Under the pieces are notes generated by a model, which made no database searches, was not told where the DNA came from, and was given only the letters and a program-made list of their open reading frames with translations. The position numbers and the translations under genes are program-made. Of a stretch of 64,000 bases of DNA, positions 41,131-52,944 are shown piece after piece. Within the stretch, counting starts at the first letter, position 1, and each line of letters starts with the position of its first letter. The DNA lies in NCBI GenBank assembly GCA_019359175.1, contig JAHHHU010000003.1:248001-312000 (forward strand), read 5' to 3'. The DNA comes from Phormidium tanganyikae FI6-MK23. GTDB lineage: Bacteria; Cyanobacteriota; Cyanobacteriia; Leptolyngbyales; Leptolyngbyaceae.

Positions 41131-41721
41131 ATGGCGTATGGCGACTTTAAAACACTAAATCAAGCATTAGCCGCATTCCAATTGACACTCATCAACCAAC
41201 CCCGACTGTTTCAAACCATTCCACTCATTGCCCCCTCATCCAAACTACAAAATCGATTAGAAGAAGGTATCGACCTCGCCTTAGCAATCTCAACCGAAAA
41301 AGCACAATCCGAGCTAATCATCGCCCCAATTCTGCTCGAAGTTCGTGAGATCGCTCAACCTCAGTCCTCGCTATTCAGCGGAGTCAGCCTCAATGCTGAT
41401 CCAGCAGCCGGATTAGTCGGAGAATGCGACTTCATCTTATCGAAGTCATCCAATCAGCTAGAAGTCACATCCCCGATCGCAGTTCTCGTCGAAGCGAAAA
41501 ATAACGACATCAAATCAGGACTCGGACAGTGTGTTGCACAAATGGTCGGCGCACAACGCTTCAATGCAGATAATTCACTCACAATCATCGGAGCCGTGAC
41601 CACAGGAGTATTATGGCGATTCCTAAGATTAGACGCTCAAACCCTGGAAATTGACCTCACCGAATATACCGTTCCCCTTCAAATTGAAACGGTTTTAGGC
41701 ATTCTCAAAAGTCCGTTCTGA
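41131..41721 (+). CDS. PD-(D/E)XK-like hypothetical protein
   Basis: 196 residues. GLVGECDFILSKSSN (Asp) and SPIAVLVEAKNNDIKSGLGQCVAQMVGAQ (E-A-K) form a restriction-endonuclease-like core with the helix G-L-x-Q-C. N-terminal part (NRLEEGIDLALAISTEKAQSELIIAPILLEV) matches a cyanobacterial hypothetical family. Same family type as the broken gene at 34249. A nuclease role is possible but unproven. Start GGAATTTCAATG is weak. Confidence 0.72.
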   Translation: MAYGDFKTLNQALAAFQLTLINQPRLFQTIPLIAPSSKLQNRLEEGIDLALAISTEKAQSELIIAPILLEVREIAQPQSSLFSGVSLNADPAAGLVGECDFILSKSSNQLEVTSPIAVLVEAKNNDIKSGLGQCVAQMVGAQRFNADNSLTIIGAVTTGVLWRFLRLDAQTLEIDLTEYTVPLQIETVLGILKSPF

Positions 41722-43212: not shown

Positions 43213-43821
43213 ATGAACGACTCAGAAAAGGATTGTCAGAGAAGAGCGATCGAAGAAGTTATGAATCAAATTCTTGACGCAGATAGCCCCCATGCTTACT
43301 CGATGATTCCAACTGTGAGACGTTACATTTACCGATTTAACCTAAAGTCTCGTGTCGAACCTGCCGAGATACTCATCGAAGCCTATCTAAGAGCGCTAAG
43401 GGCAACCAATGAGGAAATTAAGATCGAGAACCCTAAAGCGTGGCTTAGATCCACGGCATACAACATTGTTCGAGAGCGCAGTCGAAAAGAGAAAAAAGAA
43501 TTTCCCACCGATCCGCAAGCACTCGTTCTAGATTCAGCCTGCGAACCTGGCAACCATTGTGAAGCAAACTGCGATCGTAATTTAGCAATTCTTTGGCAAG
43601 CATTCAAACAACTCAGAGCCGCCGAACCTGAGATTGCAGAACTAATAGACTTGCAAATTTTGCAGCAGATGTCTTGGTCAGAAATTCAGCAACATTTCCG
43701 CAACCAAGGTCGAAAAACACCAACCATAGAAGCTTTGCGCCAAAGAGCCAGTCGCGCCAAAAAAAAGCTCCGACAACTATTCCACAAACTCGGCGGAGAA
43801 TACGAGCCGCTCCGATTCTGA
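43213..43821 (+). CDS. Sigma-70-family (ECF/SigG-like) factor
   Basis: 202 residues. Region 2-like ILIEAYLRALRATNEEIKIENPKAWLRSTAYNIVRERSR and region 4-like LIDLQILQQMSWSEIQQHFRNQGRKTPTIEALRQRASRAKKKLRQLF are present. No anti-sigma gene is adjacent. Cyanobacteria have similar minor sigma-like proteins; regulon unknown. RBS weak. Confidence 0.75.
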   Translation: MNDSEKDCQRRAIEEVMNQILDADSPHAYSMIPTVRRYIYRFNLKSRVEPAEILIEAYLRALRATNEEIKIENPKAWLRSTAYNIVRERSRKEKKEFPTDPQALVLDSACEPGNHCEANCDRNLAILWQAFKQLRAAEPEIAELIDLQILQQMSWSEIQQHFRNQGRKTPTIEALRQRASRAKKKLRQLFHKLGGEYEPLRF

Positions 43822-45537: not shown

Positions 45538-48500
45538 TTAGTTCTTTTGTATCGTTTCGGGGCATAAATTCGGCTGCGACGATCGTAAATAAGACCGCGC
45601 TCGATCGCAGCTTTGATCCAGCAAACTCTCTAAGTCCAAATTCCAGCTCGTCAACCCTAGGCGATCGCTCGTACTCAAGAGCTTTCCAGATTGAAAGGCA
45701 ACACTCGCGACCCGATCCTGTGTCCCGATCAATGTCTTAATCAGTTCCCCCGTTTCACTGTTCCAAAGTTTAATCGTAGTATCATCGCTTCCAGAAGCTA
45801 ACACCGAACCATTTTGATTAAAGCTCAAAGACGTGACACCGCTATTGTGACCGATCAAAGTTTGATGTAATTTTGCTTCATCCACCGCCCAGAGTTGAAT
45901 CCTGCTGTCCCAACTCGCAGAAGCTAATGTTTTTCCATCAGGACTAAAAGCCAGTGCCGCGATCTCTAGTTTGTGTTTTCCAAGAATCGTCGAAGTTCTG
46001 CGATCGACATCCCACAGTCGAACTGTATTATCTGCACTACCCGAAGCCAAACGCCCATCAGAACTATAACTTAAGCTTGTTACCTCATCAGTATGACCTT
46101 GCAAAATCGTTAGTAAGTTTCCTTCGATCGCCCAAATCTTAATCGTTCGATCAGCACTCGCAGACGCAAAACTTTGTCGATCGGGATTAAAACTCAATGC
46201 CGTAACGCGATCGTTATGTCCTGCAATCGTTCGGATCAGCTCTCCAGTCTCAATATTCCAAAGCCGAATTGTTTTATCCGTACTCGCAGAAATCAACAAA
46301 GAATTATCAGGACTAATTTGAATCTGAGTAATCGGAGCAGTGTGACCTTTTAAGCTAAGAAAATCTTTGTTGTGCTGTAGCTGAATCGTATTATCTGGAG
46401 CCGCGATCGCAATCACGCTTCCATCCGAATTCGCGCTCATTGTTGAAAGCCCAGTGCTCGATCGAGCTTGAGGATTGACCTGCCAAATTCGAGCCGTTTT
46501 ATCTGCACTCGCGCTTAAAAGCTGAGTTCCAGCCGGACTAAAACTAAGGTGCATCACTGCGGCTGTATGTCCTTGTATCGTTTCGAGCAGGACACCTTCT
46601 AAGTTCCAAAGCCGAATCGTTTTATCGATCGAGCCTGTTGCGATCCTGCGTCCATCAGGACTATAACTCGCCGTGTTAACTTGCTCTCGATGTCCCTCAA
46701 ACGCTGCAATCTCCTTTCCATTCAGTGTCCAAAGCTTAACGACCTTATCGCCACTCGTCAGAAACGATCGGCCATTCGGGGCCATCATCACACTATTCAC
46801 CCGCGCTTGATGGACTTCAAAGCTCTTGAGTGCATCCGATTGTCCCACTTGCCAAAATTTGACCGTCCCATCTTCGCCACCAGAAAGAATTTGTCGATCG
46901 CTCTGTCCAAAGTTCACACGGTTCACCCAGCCTTTGTGCCCCCGAAAGGTCTGAGCTTCTTTCATCTGATCAAGCTGCCACAGTTTAACTGTTCCATCTC
47001 TGCTACTCGAAACGAGAGATCGCTGATTTGGACTAAACTGCACATCTGTCACCCAATCCCGATGTCCACTCAAAGTCTGTAACAATGCTCCATCCCGATT
47101 CCACAGCTTAATCGTTTTATCTGCACTCGCAGTCGCAATTCGTTGATTGTCAGAGCTGAACGCCACCGCCAGAGCGCGATCGCTGTGTCCAGTTAAATCT
47201 TTGATCAGTTGACCTTCACGCGACCATAGTTTGACTAGTCCATCATTGCTAACCGTTGCAATCAGTTGACCATCAGAACTCATGCGAACATCATTCACAG
47301 ACTGAACATGACCCGTGAGCCGATTTGATTCTTGAGTTCGAGAAATCGCTTGCTGTAGTGTTGCGATCGCAGTTGTTTTCACCGCAACTGGGATAAAGTT
47401 CCAAGGTCGATCGAGTTGTTTTAACTGTTGTCCTGCTTTGATTGCTGCGGTTAATGATTCTAGCTGCTGATTTGAGTCCAATAAAGCCTCAGAAGAGGTA
47501 GAAAGCGCTTGAATCTCCCGAACTTGAGCATTTCTCTGATTCCACAGTGCTAAACCACTCAAACCGAATGCAGCGATCGCAACGGCTGCAATAGAGACGA
47601 TCGTGTATTGAGCGCGTCTCAAACGGCGTTTTAAGCCAATCCGCTCACCCTGACGCGCTTCTAGACTCTTCTCAATAAAAACTTGGGTATCTTGAGCAAG
47701 TTCATCAGTGTGCTTTGCATAAAGCTCTTCCGCTTCTGCAAGTCGCATTCCTCGCAACAATAAATCAGGCGATCGATTGCTCTTTTTCCACTCGATCGCA
47801 GATTGTTCGATCGGGCGCTGAACTCGTAGCCGATTGCGGTTTTCATCAACCCACCCGCGCAACGTTGACCACTGCCGAATCAAAATTTCGTGGGCTAACT
47901 CGATCATATCGGTGTTGATCACAATCAGCTTTGCAGCACTCAGCGATTGCAATGTTCGATCGATTAATGCTCCAGAATACTTCACTGTAGATAAGTCCGA
48001 CTTTAGCACTCTCCGCCCCGAATCTTCTCCAAGCGGTGTGAGCGACAGAAAGATCCAGCGAGCACACTGTTGTTCATCGTCATCGAGTTGATTGTAAGCC
48101 GATTGCGCTTTATGATCTAACGCACCTTGCAAACTTCCAATCTCAGAACGATAAGCTTCTAATGTTAGTGTTCCTTGTTGCCACAGTTGATCGAGTACAA
48201 ATTCTAAGCTCGGCAAATCTGCTGGAGTTCGGACGCTCTGCGAGGCGAAGCCACCGAGTTCTTGCAGCAAAACCTCGACCAATTCCAACTCCACCGTCAA
48301 TCCCACTTGTTCCGCAGGTTGTACAATCGCTTGACAGTAGGCTTCATCACTCAGATAAGGCGGAACTAAAATGCTCGATCGCTGTAAAATCGTCGCAAGC
48401 TGAGGAATTTCCAAACCTGCCGCAACAAAATCGGCTCTCAGAGTGAAAACAAGTCTAAAGCGATCGCGAGTATATTCAAGAATCTCTAAAATAATGTTGA

Positions 48501-50367
48501 GAAAGTCTTGCCGAACATACTCAGAACAGAGCGTAAAGAGTTCTTCAAGCTGATCAATTACTAGCAATACCATCGGTTCAGATCGCGTCCGAAACCATTG
48601 CACTAAGCCTTCTGTACCTTGATATAACAATCCTTCAATCTGAGCTTGATCTTCTGGGTCAGCTAAACATTGCACTAAAGCATCAAACGGTTGACTTCCT
48701 GGACACATTCGCCCGATCCACCAGTGTTCACTTCCCGGAACGCGCTCCCCCTGACGCAACTGCGCCATCAATCCTGCCTGCACGATCGAAGATTTTCCAC
48801 TCCCCGAAGCTCCAATCACTGCTAAACAAGACTGTCGCTGAATTGCTTGTAAAAGCTGTTGCGTGATTGCTTCCCGCCCATAAAAGAATACTGCATCATT
48901 TTCCGTAAATGCTTGCAATCCCCGATAAGGACGCGCATCCAAACCCTGAGACAACTGCTGCCCCGGAAATACTTCAAGGATGTTCTGTGTTCCCAACAAA
49001 CAAGCCTGAAGCGCAATCTTTTCAGCTAACGCCACTTGAAGTTGAGCAATCCACGCCGCGACTGAATAGCCCGATCGAGGATCGCTACGACTCAAAGTTT
49101 CAACCAGCGATCGCGTAAACAATTCAGCTTCATTTCGAGGAGAAGCTGCCGCAATCAAACACTGTCCCTGCTCTCGCTGTAATTCCTCGATCCAATCGGG
49201 CAAATCATCTGCACCCGGACAATCGAGAATCACAATCTGTTGAGCGATCGCGCTTTTCCGCAAAGCTTGACGCAACCACGATCGAGAAATTCGCTCAGTC
49301 CCCAACATCAAACAAGGCTCACCCTCGATCGTGGTTCCAGCTTTGGCACGTAAATAAACTAGAACTGTTGTTGCTTCCGGTGTCTGTAGCTTCGCTTGAA
49401 TGCTCGATCGAACAGTCTTCCAATCATCAGAATGATACGCCAACTCAAACTCACCATTAAGTAGCTTACTCAGTTGCAAAGTTAAACGATGATTGGGAAA
49501 CGCATCAATCACGATCGCTTGCCGAGAAGGAAGTGCGATCGACTTTGATTTCACGCCCAATACGAACTGTTCTGAACTCTCTACGAATCGTTTTGGAGTT
49601 TGCAGCGGATATTGTTCCCCCCGCTTTTGTTGATTGCTCTTATCAATGTACTGAAGCGTTTGATGATACACATACTTGTACAATCTATCTGCATCGATCG
49701 TTCCGCTCGAATCTGCCGCCGCTCCTCGCAATCCCTGCATCAGAAAGTATGTAAACACCCCATGCCCCAACTCTGGAAACTCCCAAGATCGTTGAGCCTG
49801 ATCACAAGACAACAATCCGTAAAAGCCTTGACTCTGTGAAGCTTGCCGTCTGAACAATTCCATCAATTGCACAGTTGGATTTGAAAGCATCTCTCCAAGC
49901 GTCGAATCGTGACAAGCATCTAACCATACAATTTGTTGCTTTGCTGAAGAGTGACTCAACTGCTCCAAAAGCTCAGAAACACTCAGCCCAGTCTTCAGCA
50001 AATCCGCTGTTTGAGTATCAGCCAAACAAAGAATCGGTCGCTGTGTTTCCGTCTCTAAAACACCATGACCCGAAAAGTACACGAGAACAGTATCCAAAGC
50101 TTGAGCCGATTGAACGATCGTACTCAAGCTGTCGCGGACTTGAGCGATCGTTGCCGGAACTCCAAAATCGTGGCGACTTTGCATCGATCGTGCTTGAAAG
50201 GCTTGAGTCGCATCAATCAGCGCCTCAGAAAGCCCCTGACAATCGATCGCGGAATATTGCAGCGAAGGAAGGTGTGGATCTTTGTAGCGATTGACACCGA
50301 CTAACAAAATCCAGAGTTTAGCTTGTCCCGTCTCTAAGACGGTGGAACGGTTGACAGCGCGGAGCAT
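45538..50367 (-). CDS. Caspase / degenerate caspase / STAND NTPase / WD40 protein
   Basis: 1609 residues. (1) Caspase-like p20, about 15-270: His101 in VYFSGHGV, Cys152 in WLDACHD. (2) A second caspase-like unit, about 280-475: VLVYLRAKAG replaces the His motif and VILDCPGADD keeps a Cys, so probably inactive. (3) nSTAND NTPase from 480: YRGLQAFTENDAVFFYGRE, Walker A GASGSGKSS (519-527), Walker B VLLVIDQLEE. (4) A membrane segment (TIVSIAAVAIAAFGLSGLALW). (5) 14 WD40 blades to the end, blade 8 degenerate. WD40-STAND-caspase fusions are suspected cell-death or anti-phage sensors. Start at ATG 50367 is plausible. Confidence 0.92.
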   Translation of the reverse strand: MLRAVNRSTVLETGQAKLWILLVGVNRYKDPHLPSLQYSAIDCQGLSEALIDATQAFQARSMQSRHDFGVPATIAQVRDSLSTIVQSAQALDTVLVYFSGHGVLETETQRPILCLADTQTADLLKTGLSVSELLEQLSHSSAKQQIVWLDACHDSTLGEMLSNPTVQLMELFRRQASQSQGFYGLLSCDQAQRSWEFPELGHGVFTYFLMQGLRGAAADSSGTIDADRLYKYVYHQTLQYIDKSNQQKRGEQYPLQTPKRFVESSEQFVLGVKSKSIALPSRQAIVIDAFPNHRLTLQLSKLLNGEFELAYHSDDWKTVRSSIQAKLQTPEATTVLVYLRAKAGTTIEGEPCLMLGTERISRSWLRQALRKSAIAQQIVILDCPGADDLPDWIEELQREQGQCLIAAASPRNEAELFTRSLVETLSRSDPRSGYSVAAWIAQLQVALAEKIALQACLLGTQNILEVFPGQQLSQGLDARPYRGLQAFTENDAVFFYGREAITQQLLQAIQRQSCLAVIGASGSGKSSIVQAGLMAQLRQGERVPGSEHWWIGRMCPGSQPFDALVQCLADPEDQAQIEGLLYQGTEGLVQWFRTRSEPMVLLVIDQLEELFTLCSEYVRQDFLNIILEILEYTRDRFRLVFTLRADFVAAGLEIPQLATILQRSSILVPPYLSDEAYCQAIVQPAEQVGLTVELELVEVLLQELGGFASQSVRTPADLPSLEFVLDQLWQQGTLTLEAYRSEIGSLQGALDHKAQSAYNQLDDDEQQCARWIFLSLTPLGEDSGRRVLKSDLSTVKYSGALIDRTLQSLSAAKLIVINTDMIELAHEILIRQWSTLRGWVDENRNRLRVQRPIEQSAIEWKKSNRSPDLLLRGMRLAEAEELYAKHTDELAQDTQVFIEKSLEARQGERIGLKRRLRRAQYTIVSIAAVAIAAFGLSGLALWNQRNAQVREIQALSTSSEALLDSNQQLESLTAAIKAGQQLKQLDRPWNFIPVAVKTTAIATLQQAISRTQESNRLTGHVQSVNDVRMSSDGQLIATVSNDGLVKLWSREGQLIKDLTGHSDRALAVAFSSDNQRIATASADKTIKLWNRDGALLQTLSGHRDWVTDVQFSPNQRSLVSSSRDGTVKLWQLDQMKEAQTFRGHKGWVNRVNFGQSDRQILSGGEDGTVKFWQVGQSDALKSFEVHQARVNSVMMAPNGRSFLTSGDKVVKLWTLNGKEIAAFEGHREQVNTASYSPDGRRIATGSIDKTIRLWNLEGVLLETIQGHTAAVMHLSFSPAGTQLLSASADKTARIWQVNPQARSSTGLSTMSANSDGSVIAIAAPDNTIQLQHNKDFLSLKGHTAPITQIQISPDNSLLISASTDKTIRLWNIETGELIRTIAGHNDRVTALSFNPDRQSFASASADRTIKIWAIEGNLLTILQGHTDEVTSLSYSSDGRLASGSADNTVRLWDVDRRTSTILGKHKLEIAALAFSPDGKTLASASWDSRIQLWAVDEAKLHQTLIGHNSGVTSLSFNQNGSVLASGSDDTTIKLWNSETGELIKTLIGTQDRVASVAFQSGKLLSTSDRLGLTSWNLDLESLLDQSCDRARSYLRSSQPNLCPETIQKN

Positions 50368-51765: not shown

Positions 51766-52944
51766 ATGTTCAAAAGCCGTTTGTTGCTGAGTCTCGTTGC
51801 TTTGAGTGTGAGTTTCTGTATCAGTTTGCTGATCACGCGAGACTTTGGTAAATCGGTGATCAGCGGTGCGGTGACGCTGTTTGCGAGTTTGGTCGGTGCA
51901 GCAGTATCAGAAAATCAGCATCGACAAGCACTGTATCGACGCTCAGAAGACTTAACCGGGCACATTCGGGCACTGCAACGAAAACGTTCGGAAGCGTATG
52001 AATCGCTCGTGATGATCACCCAAGAACGCGATCGCATTTCCAACAGTCTCAATTCGCTCCAAACTCAATTACGTGGTCTTCAGATCCAAAGCGCTAATCT
52101 TTGGCAACAAAAAGAAGAACTAAGCTGGAATATTACTTCACCGCAAGCATCGCCAGAAAATCAAATTTACGTTCTACAAACAAAGCTACAAGAGTTAGAA
52201 CAAAAAGAAGCTGAATTAAACAAATCACTATCGGCAACGCTAACCGCAAAACAACGAGCGGAACTTGGTTTAAAAACAACACAAGCACAGTTAAATCAAT
52301 TCCAAGCACAACTCGCAGAACAGCAAAGCCAAAAAGCCGAACTCACAAAAGAAGTAAATGCGCTACTCTCGCAGCGACAACAATTGGATACGCAACTCAC
52401 AACACTTCAACCAAAAGTAAAAGAACTTGAGAAATATCGCACTGAGTTAGGTCAATTTCTCGCCACAGCAGAACCGAAACGCCAACAAGTAGAAAGTAGT
52501 TCCAAATCGTTACAAGGCGCGATCGAGAACCTTCAAACCCAAATTTCCTCACTCCAAGGCGAACTCGGTCAACTCGAACATCAAATTCTTGATCGTCGTC
52601 AGCAAAAAGAAATGCTCGATCGAGAACTTTCCACCTTACGCCGGGAACTCGAACCCGATGCCGATTCTCAACCTTCCTCTGAGTGGGAAGCCTTTCTGAA
52701 TCAATTACAGCAACCCGAATTTGAAGCACTAAATGCGATCGCCCATCAACCCAACCCAAACGCAACCTTGAAAAAGATCGCAGAAGCGAGTTTAACCATG
52801 CCCGAATTGCTGATTGATTCGATCAATGAACGAGCGATCGAAACGATCGGGGATTTTGTGATTGATCCGACTCCAGGTTCAAGCGCACCCTCGATCGCGC
52901 CTGAGTACTTGGAAACAGTGAAAAGCTTGTTAAAGCGACCTTAG
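51766..52944 (+). CDS. Membrane-anchored coiled-coil protein, TerB-C-like end
   Basis: 392 residues. Two membrane segments (about 6-24 and 33-48), a long coiled coil (about 60-300) rich in Q/E/L heptads, and a globular end EWEAFLNQLQQPEFEALNAI and LIDSINERAIETIGDFVIDP like the TerB-C domain of tellurite-resistance-like proteins. 7 bases after the MFS gene, probable operon. Function unknown. Confidence 0.78.
   Translation: MFKSRLLLSLVALSVSFCISLLITRDFGKSVISGAVTLFASLVGAAVSENQHRQALYRRSEDLTGHIRALQRKRSEAYESLVMITQERDRISNSLNSLQTQLRGLQIQSANLWQQKEELSWNITSPQASPENQIYVLQTKLQELEQKEAELNKSLSATLTAKQRAELGLKTTQAQLNQFQAQLAEQQSQKAELTKEVNALLSQRQQLDTQLTTLQPKVKELEKYRTELGQFLATAEPKRQQVESSSKSLQGAIENLQTQISSLQGELGQLEHQILDRRQQKEMLDRELSTLRRELEPDADSQPSSEWEAFLNQLQQPEFEALNAIAHQPNPNATLKKIAEASLTMPELLIDSINERAIETIGDFVIDPTPGSSAPSIAPEYLETVKSLLKRP

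What the first reader, a model, noticed from the sequence alone, without database searches (positions are those of the whole stretch)
45538..50367. Caspase + degenerate caspase + STAND + 14 WD40 blades in one protein
The second caspase-like unit parallels the first (VLVYLRAKAG vs VLVYFSGHGV; QQIVILDCPGADD vs QQIVWLDACHD) but has lost the catalytic His. A pseudo-caspase next to an active one could act as an inhibitor or recruitment surface. The STAND and WD40 parts suggest a sensor that assembles on a signal. A candidate abortive-infection or cell-death system.
Basis: partly seen in the sequence, partly recalled or inferred. Interest (0 to 1): 0.65.

Follow-up and report, generated by a model that had tools for sequence, protein, structure and literature searches.

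The report
Caspase receptor with built-in pseudo-caspase
This cyanobacterial protein joins a working-looking caspase (a cell-death-type protease) to a second, conserved caspase that has lost its catalytic parts, and the family travels with a gene-switch pair, which suggests a membrane sensor whose protease turns genes on rather than a simple suicide device.

Summary
Confirmed: one 1609-aa ORF (45538-50367, minus) = caspase (H101/C152) + caspase-like unit 2 (278-470) + nSTAND1 + predicted transmembrane helix + 14 WD40 blades. Unit 2 is a caspase fold (model of a homologue: 50 best structural matches all caspase-clan, Z up to 15.4) and a conserved pseudo-caspase: in 43 proteins (window included) from 30 of 386 cyanobacterial genomes, unit 1 keeps His/Cys 43/43 and unit 2 has either 0/43. 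Each unit 2 follows an active-type caspase. It is under purifying selection (dN/dS about 0.18), and Pfam misses it (0/33), which may be why surveys saw ordinary WD40 orthocaspases. It may be a demoted original caspase: it resembles active 'LDCC' caspases that precede nSTAND1 elsewhere; the tree favours but does not prove this. New: a sigma-factor + DUF1822 pair lies within 4.1 kb of 11/43 genes (0.46 expected; not at the window's gene) and co-occurs with the family (29/30 versus 2/356 genomes; cut-off chosen afterwards). Best reading: a membrane STAND receptor whose caspase, with the pseudo-caspase as built-in partner, acts on that pair. Abortive infection is possible but unsupported. New variant of a known kind.

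The parts
45538..50367 (-). whole gene, 1609 aa: caspase - pseudo-caspase - nSTAND1 - TM - 14 WD40 blades
   Evidence: open frame without stops; domains
49540..50367 (-). unit 1, active-type orthocaspase (residues 1-276)
   Evidence: PF00656 E 1.7e-15; PADLOC caspase 2.8e-15; NCBIfam caspase_w_EACC1 9e-36 but under its cut-off
50065..50067 (-). catalytic His codon of unit 1 (H101)
   Evidence: H in 43 of 43 proteins
49912..49914 (-). catalytic Cys codon of unit 1 (C152)
   Evidence: C in 43 of 43 proteins
48958..49536 (-). unit 2, conserved pseudo-caspase (residues 278-470)
   Evidence: hhalign with controls; AF2 model of unit 2 of homologue L085, pLDDT 74, pTM 0.78; VIA-align Z up to 15.4, all 50 rows shown caspase-clan peptidases
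49342..49344 (-). unit 2, position of the lost His (K342)
   Evidence: 0 His of 43: R23 Q6 K4 E3 S2 T2 I1 N1 C1
49216..49218 (-). unit 2, position of the lost Cys (P384)
   Evidence: 0 Cys of 43: P29 L4 I3 T2 and five single residues
47767..48930 (-). nSTAND1 NTPase (residues 480-867)
   Evidence: PF20703 E 7.5e-108
47545..47601 (-). predicted transmembrane helix (residues 923-941)
   Evidence: hydropathy 2.34; net charge +5 before, +1 after; a like segment in 33 of 33 homologues with nSTAND1
45637..47328 (-). 14 WD40 blades, probably two seven-bladed propellers
   Evidence: PF00400 E 1.4e-128, 12 stretches; W-motif listing

Best explanation
A membrane-anchored STAND receptor with a caspase output. 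The WD40 propellers (predicted on the far side of the membrane) or, in relatives, GUN4 or other C-termini, sense a signal. The nSTAND1 NTPase oligomerises and brings the N-terminal caspases together. Unit 2 is a non-catalytic caspase-fold partner that holds unit 1 and tunes its activation, working like cFLIP(L) beside caspase-8 but in the same chain. The active caspase then acts on a partner pair encoded next door or elsewhere in the genome: most likely it cleaves the DUF1822 protein and frees the sigma factor, so the output is at least partly transcriptional. Shown here: dyad kept in unit 1 and lost in unit 2, caspase fold of unit 2, constraint on unit 2, constant pairing, co-occurrence and adjacency of the sigma/DUF1822 pair. 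Inferred: oligomerisation, unit1-unit2 contact, DUF1822 as anti-sigma factor and substrate, the signal.
For: Unit 1 His/Cys 43/43; unit 2 0/43. Unit 2 caspase fold. Unit 2 dN/dS median 0.18 over 50 pairs, unit 1 0.14 over 34 pairs. In 43 of 43 ORFs unit 2 follows an active-type caspase; 33 have nSTAND1, 10 do not; 5 of these 10 carry GUN4. TM-like segment 33/33. Sigma/DUF1822 within 4.1 kb of 11 of 43 genes, 0.46 expected. The sigma ortholog (550 bits or more) is in 29 of 30 family genomes and 2 of 356 others; one of the two, G334, holds a decayed remnant of the caspase gene 1.7 kb from its sigma gene. Within family f7 the split is 19/19 versus 2/23. Sigma and DUF1822 are themselves a constant pair in 20 of 20 further loci, chosen as high-scoring DUF1822 matches not next to a family gene, and no caspase was found in those stretches. 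Precedents seen as passages: Csx29 (pseudo- plus active caspase-like domain) cleaves Csx30 and relieves an ECF sigma (PMC10028731); FLIP(L) (PMC7586951).
Against: In the window's own locus the pair is absent (in this genome it lies beside the paralogue on contig 59), and 32 of 43 genes lack it within 4.1 kb. The sigma profile was built from family genomes and the 550-bit cut was chosen after seeing scores; at 200 bits the split is 29/30 versus 15/356. The best sigma matches of G078 and G278 each carry an internal stop. One family genome (G111) lacks the sigma ortholog. Co-occurrence partly reflects kinship. Nothing shows that DUF1822 is an anti-sigma factor or is cleaved. The two-unit AF2 model is poor (pLDDT 55.5, pTM 0.47), so no unit1-unit2 interface is shown. 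The window copy reads DACHDS where most relatives read DACHSG, so even its unit-1 activity is unproven.
Confidence: 0.42

Rival explanations
1. Abortive-infection or programmed-death receptor (bacterial apoptosome-like): the WD40/STAND part senses a phage or damage signal, activates unit 1, and broad proteolysis kills or arrests the cell; unit 2 is a safety lock.
For: Architecture of sensor, STAND and caspase effector; caspase and STAND proteins of this general kind are proposed as conflict systems (passages of PMC7159879 and PMC8195603); PADLOC has a caspase model that matches; three plasmid records carry the module, as defence genes often do (recalled).
Against: No defence cluster among 8 flanking ORFs (one PD-DExK match, one coiled-coil protein with SngA- and Jet-like matches); no match in phage records or in four viral-contig scans, which reach close relatives only; WD40 predicted outside the cytoplasm; sigma/DUF1822 partner.
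Confidence: 0.25
2. Unit 2 is a peptide-binding exosite or decoy: it keeps the Asp of the old LDxC motif (43/43) and recruits substrate or a viral inhibitor for unit 1, without touching unit 1's activation.
For: D382 43/43 while the dyad is lost; many caspases in effector position of conflict systems are reported inactive and proposed as dominant-negative or peptide-binding parts (PMC7159879).
Against: Residues next to the former His and Cys vary (positions 342, 384, 385). The rest of the former substrate pocket was not examined. No binding data.
Confidence: 0.18
3. Unit 2 is only a structural spacer left over from an ancestral caspase-nSTAND1 protein, kept because the STAND domain needs a folded neighbour.
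For: It occupies the slot directly before nSTAND1 that an LDCC caspase holds in 15 of 20 other loci; tree placement.
Against: Unit 2 stays with unit 1 when nSTAND1 is absent (10 of 43), and has invariant positions (T334, Y338, W364, D382, C403, F417, each 43/43).
Confidence: 0.12

Closest known systems
Cyanobacterial WD40 orthocaspases (cbMC-beta with WD40(14), Jiang 2010 PMC2853523; PMC3501461; PMC5756287)
   Same: active p20 with, in some, a NACHT- or AAA-type NTPase and 7 to 15 WD40 repeats; a TM segment between p20 and WD40 is noted for six proteins in PMC7475262
   Different: in the passages I saw they are treated as single-p20 proteins; neither a pseudo-caspase unit nor a sigma/DUF1822 link is mentioned there
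Pseudo-orthocaspases (PMC6426788, PMC8283722)
   Same: caspase homologues without the His/Cys dyad
   Different: found by the C14 profile, mostly Tyr/Ser or Tyr/Asn at the dyad, and 123 of 133 in PMC8283722 hold a single C14 domain and no other; here the pseudo-unit is always fused behind an active-type caspase, its His position is most often Arg, and the C14 profile misses it
EACC1 and EACC2 caspase conflict systems (PMC7159879, PMC8195603)
   Same: constant caspase with variable C-termini, STAND among them; for EACC2-caspase genes without TRADD-N the paper reports neighbouring ECF sigma and DUF1822 genes
   Different: no EACC1-like gene recognised beside the window gene and no room for an N-terminal EACC2 domain; the constant module is active caspase + pseudo-caspase
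cFLIP(L)/caspase-8 (PMC7586951)
   Same: active caspase paired with a pseudo-caspase; the lost His is Arg in FLIP(L) and most often Arg here (23 of 43)
   Different: separate chains, animal proteins; no shared ancestry of the pairing shown
Csx29 (type III-E CRISPR) and separase (PMC10028731)
   Same: pseudo-caspase and active caspase-like domain in one chain; Csx29 acts on an ECF sigma inhibitor
   Different: CHAT domains, pseudo-unit numbered first (CHAT1) and active unit second (CHAT2), TPR and CRISPR partners instead of STAND and WD40

Membership tests
Orthocaspase (peptidase C14, prokaryotic) | p20 domain with His/Cys dyad | tested here: met
   unit 1: PF00656 over cut-off, H and C 43/43
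Orthocaspase (peptidase C14, prokaryotic) | proteolytic activity after basic residues | not testable with these tools
   needs an enzyme assay
Unit 2 as caspase fold | caspase/haemoglobinase fold | tested here: met
   unit 2 of homologue L085: Z 15.4 to procaspase-6, 180 aligned, rmsd 3.1, 50 rows shown all caspase-clan; the window's own unit 2 was modelled only poorly, with a like order of strands and helices
Unit 2 as active caspase | His/Cys dyad | tested here: not met
   0 of 43 at either position
Pseudo-orthocaspase (published sense) | p20 domain found by the C14 profile, with substituted dyad | tested here: not met
   Pfam C14 matches unit 2 in 0 of 33 scanned; dyad substitutions differ from YS/YN
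nSTAND1 receptor | nSTAND1 NTPase with C-terminal repeats | tested here: met
   PF20703 7.5e-108 and WD40
EACC1 caspase system | caspase over the NCBIfam cut-off | tested here: not met
   134 bits for the whole protein against 140
EACC1 caspase system | adjacent EACC1 gene (single conserved TM helix) | tested here: inconclusive
   named flanking genes are a transglutaminase-like protein and an MFS transporter; EACC1 was not searched by profile
EACC2 caspase system | alpha+beta EACC2 domain N-terminal to the caspase | tested here: not met
   unit 1's first strand begins at residue 18, so no domain fits before it
EACC2 caspase system | neighbouring ECF sigma and DUF1822 genes | tested here: inconclusive
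   present at 11 of 43 family genes, absent at the window's own gene
Anti-phage defence system | shown protection, or residence among defence genes | tested here: inconclusive
   no defence cluster among 8 flanking ORFs; protection cannot be tested here
cFLIP-like pairing | physical heterodimer of active and pseudo-caspase | tested here: inconclusive
   two-unit model too poor (pTM 0.47)

The most novel reading that the evidence does not exclude
A cyanobacterial signalling system in which a membrane STAND receptor carries its own intramolecular caspase/pseudo-caspase pair (a bacterial analogue of caspase-8/cFLIP in one chain) and uses it to release a dedicated sigma factor from a DUF1822 anti-sigma protein: receptor, protease and transcription switch as one co-inherited three-gene system.
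Probability: 0.25. Interest if true: 0.82.

Novelty: new variant of a known kind. Interest (0 to 1): 0.63.

Why it matters
Orthocaspases of cyanobacteria are mostly discussed in terms of cell death, and I saw no trigger or substrate named for the large WD40 forms in the passages I read. A conserved pseudo-caspase inside them gives a concrete regulatory part to mutate, and a sigma/DUF1822 pair that co-occurs with the family gives a concrete substrate and output to test. It would also offer a bacterial case of active/inactive caspase pairing outside the CHAT/separase kind, which bears on how such control arose.

Tried and rejected
Unit 2 as a chance resemblance: rejected by shuffles, reversal and unrelated-domain controls, by structure, and by the unit-2 profile matching other caspases, among them unit 1 of the same protein at E 4.4e-6. 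Unit 2 as a decaying relic: rejected by dN/dS (pairs overlap and are not independent, and pairs with dS of 1.5 or more were dropped, which leaves different pair sets: 50 for unit 2, 34 for unit 1, 31 for STAND, 24 for WD40). Unit 2 as a tandem copy of unit 1: disfavoured, not excluded. STAND tree to show a common origin with the LDCC-caspase receptors: each group clusters, but their mutual relation is unresolved. Phage origin: no match in phage records or in four viral-contig scans with three other members and the window, which reach close relatives only. Sequence search of solved structures with the unit-2 profile or unit 1: nothing useful. Foldseek on the two-unit model lists caspases but gives no range and probably reflects unit 1. 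A third neighbour cluster (12 ORFs in 10 loci, sensor-kinase-like by eye, one of them far away in the window) looked like a large paralogous family and was not pursued.

The alignment-based genome-contig scan could not start; the single-protein scan that replaced it found 8 loci, named Nodularia, Anabaenopsis, Chrysosporum, Trichormus, Dendronalium, Nostoc and 'Nostocales cyanobacterium'. Spread outside Cyanobacteria is untested.

Full report
Observation. The minus-strand ORF 45538-50367 codes for 1609 aa without stops. Pfam gives a caspase at 19-233, nSTAND1 at 480-867 and WD40 repeats. I count 14 blades: 13 with a W motif and one degenerate, read by eye. A hydrophobic segment at 923-941 lies between STAND and WD40; a like segment is present in 33 of 33 homologues with nSTAND1, and the N-terminal side is more positive in 33 of 33, so the caspases and STAND are predicted in the cytoplasm and the propellers on the other side. 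This is a hydropathy estimate, not a trained topology predictor.

Unit 2 is a caspase fold. Alone it has no Pfam hit, and the C14 model finds 0 of 33 family members scanned. NCBIfam's caspase_w_EACC1 model finds 19 of 33 at E 0.01, best 2.7e-6; the one score shown, the window's, is 21 bits against a cut-off of 140. Profile-profile comparison with unit 1 scores 45.0 (E 8e-6) against a maximum of 26.3 in 200 column shuffles, and lines up YLRG with YFSGHG and LDCP with LDAC. AlphaFold2 on residues 1-480 of the window protein with 8 homologues was poor (pLDDT 55.5). Unit 2 of the homologue L085 alone gave pLDDT 74 and pTM 0.78. Of Foldseek's 23 PDB matches at E 0.001 or better, 22 are caspases, metacaspases or the paracaspase MALT1 and one is the receptor mGlu2. 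The 50 rows of VIA-align are all of these peptidases, Z 13.4 to 15.4, best procaspase-6 with 180 residues aligned at 3.1 A.

It is a conserved pseudo-enzyme. A search of 386 cyanobacterial genomes with the unit-2 profile found 43 full matches (150 bits or more, the window's included) in 30 genomes. The single-sequence search had listed 33 genomes at E 1e-3, three of which (G066, G262, G334) hold no full match. The phylum is named, where the G143 match is the plasmid NC_011721.1 of Rippkaea orientalis (same length and place), and names Nodularia, Anabaenopsis, Nostoc and others. In all 43 ORFs an active-type caspase lies before unit 2. Its His and Cys are kept 43/43. Unit 2 has no His and no Cys at those places in any of the 43, while T334, Y338, W364, D382, C403 and F417 are invariant. 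Among eleven related genes unit 2 evolves at a median dN/dS of 0.18, unit 1 at 0.14. So unit 2 is maintained, not decaying.

The pair is a module. 33 of 43 proteins continue with nSTAND1 and a TM-like segment. I scanned four of these whole with Pfam: the window and L047 have WD40; L052 and L054, which are shorter, show none. Ten of 43 lack nSTAND1. Five of these end in GUN4; five carry repeats with an 'IGPIA'-like motif, read by eye, that Pfam does not name (in L078 Pfam at E 0.001 misses even unit 1).

Origin. The unit-2 profile also finds, more weakly, other caspases in large proteins. One search lists 34 such places; without the G334 remnant and unit 1 of the window protein 32 remain, of which I fetched 20. 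Eighteen of the 20 keep His and Cys; L109 and L110 do not. In 15 of the 20 the caspase sits directly before nSTAND1 in the same frame, the slot that unit 2 holds here. The remaining Cys of unit 2 (LDCP) fits the first Cys of their LDCC. A careful tree of 50 rows with the dyad columns left out has a branch (96/92) with unit 2, this clade and one further caspase on one side and unit 1 on the other; unit 2 plus this clade alone has only 77/73, and holding units 1 and 2 together costs 6.6 log units (p-AU 0.25), so a tandem-copy origin is not rejected. The clade's rows were found because they match unit 2. The nSTAND1 tree does not settle it. My reading, as inference: an old caspase-nSTAND1 receptor gained a new N-terminal caspase and the old one was demoted to a partner.

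Neighbours. In 41 loci with the 43 genes, 11 genes have a conserved pair beside them: a sigma factor of about 400 aa and a DUF1822 protein. I confirmed the families by Pfam for three of the 11 (sigma-70 region 4 in three, with region 2 and ECF in one; DUF1822 in three); the others are in the same BLAST clusters. Six of the 11 (L040, L045, L048, L052, L054, L064) have all three genes on one strand, with the nearest gap to the caspase gene from 34 bases to 2.9 kb; in five the pair is divergent. With 136 DUF1822 matches, some of them pieces, in the 30 family genomes, 0.46 such neighbours would be expected within 4.1 kb of the 43 genes; 11 are seen. The pair itself is constant: 20 of 20 further loci, which I chose as high-scoring DUF1822 matches away from family genes, have the sigma gene beside DUF1822, and none shows a caspase within the fetched stretch (mostly about 5 kb on each side).

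Co-occurrence. Across 386 genomes the sigma ortholog (550 bits or more) is in 29 of 30 family genomes and 2 of 356 others; at a looser 200 bits, 29 of 30 and 15 of 356. Within the one large family, f7, the split is 19/19 versus 2/23, among the 123 genomes whose family code I had, nearly all of them genomes with a caspase match. One of the two exceptions, G334, keeps a broken remnant of the caspase gene 1.7 kb from its sigma gene. The exception on the other side, G111, has the lowest-scoring unit 2. Cautions: the sigma profile was built from family genomes, the cut was set after the scores were seen, the best sigma matches of G078 and G278 carry an internal stop, and kinship is only partly controlled. 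In the window's own genome the pair lies beside the short paralogue on contig 59 (L048), not beside the window gene.

Mechanism. The sequence supports a receptor with a caspase output and a built-in pseudo-caspase. The sigma/DUF1822 link makes a transcriptional output the most economical reading: by analogy with Csx29, which has a pseudo- and an active caspase-like domain and cleaves Csx30 to relieve an ECF sigma factor (passages of PMC10028731), the caspase may cleave DUF1822 and free the sigma factor. That DUF1822 is an anti-sigma factor is my inference. The role of unit 2 as a partner of unit 1 is by analogy with FLIP(L), whose lost His is an Arg and which forms an active heterodimer with caspase-8 (passages of PMC7586951). 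Against a simple abortive-infection reading: no match in phage records or in viral-contig scans that reach close relatives only, no defence cluster among 8 flanking ORFs, sensor predicted outside the cytoplasm. For it: the architecture, and three plasmid records with the module. It is not excluded, and a sigma-driven response can itself be defensive.

What is in print. Seen as passages only: WD40 and GUN4 orthocaspases (PMC2853523, PMC3501461, PMC8283722, PMC7475262, PMC5756287), pseudo-orthocaspases (PMC6426788), conflict-system caspases, many of those in effector position inactive (PMC7159879), nSTAND1 receptors (PMC10907252). Section 9 of PMC8195603, read whole, reports ECF sigma and DUF1822 genes beside EACC2-caspase genes, so a caspase-sigma-DUF1822 link as such is already in print; whether that gene set includes this family I could not check, since figures and supplements are not held. 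In the listings of searches (open-licence PMC papers only) and the passages read, I found no description of an active caspase followed by a conserved pseudo-caspase in a bacterial STAND receptor. Surveys that use the C14 profile would probably not see unit 2.

Verdict. The death or abortive-infection claim is possible but has a better rival. New variant of a known kind, interest 0.63.

Noticed in passing
L066:1455-5021 (+): An nSTAND1 protein of the same STAND clade lacking both caspase units, about 1.3 kb from an intact two-unit gene.
   Followed up: partly
L211 (genome G334): A decayed copy of the gene: a partial unit 2 with an internal stop, 1.7 kb from an open sigma gene of the partner type.
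   Followed up: partly
L045 (= plasmid NC_011721.1, Rippkaea orientalis PCC 8801): Short two-unit caspase, sigma and DUF1822 in one row on one strand of a plasmid, so the three genes may move together; two Stanieria cyanosphaera plasmids also carry matches to unit 2.
   Followed up: partly
L109:2681-6001, L110:156-2510: LDCC-type caspases with partly lost motifs (AGRG/LDCG; SGYI), possibly further pseudo-caspases forming.
   Followed up: no
window 41131-41721: 196-aa protein matching PADLOC's PD_DExK model at 1.4e-45; no Pfam hit.
   Followed up: no
window 51766-52944: Coiled-coil protein with a TerB_C match at its end and a PADLOC SngA match, two genes beyond the start of the caspase gene on the opposite strand.
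   Followed up: no
window 43213-43821: Short sigma-70 region-2 protein 1.7 kb from the caspase gene; not in the cluster of the 400-aa sigma factor.
   Followed up: partly
window 49903-49920: The window's unit 1 reads DACHDS where most relatives have DACHSG, and compared with eight relatives it lacks two loop stretches; its activity may be altered.
   Followed up: no
L048 (G000 contig 59), 8609-15766: The window genome's second two-unit gene, a short form without nSTAND1, with the DUF1822 and sigma genes on the same strand 2.3 kb away.
   Followed up: partly
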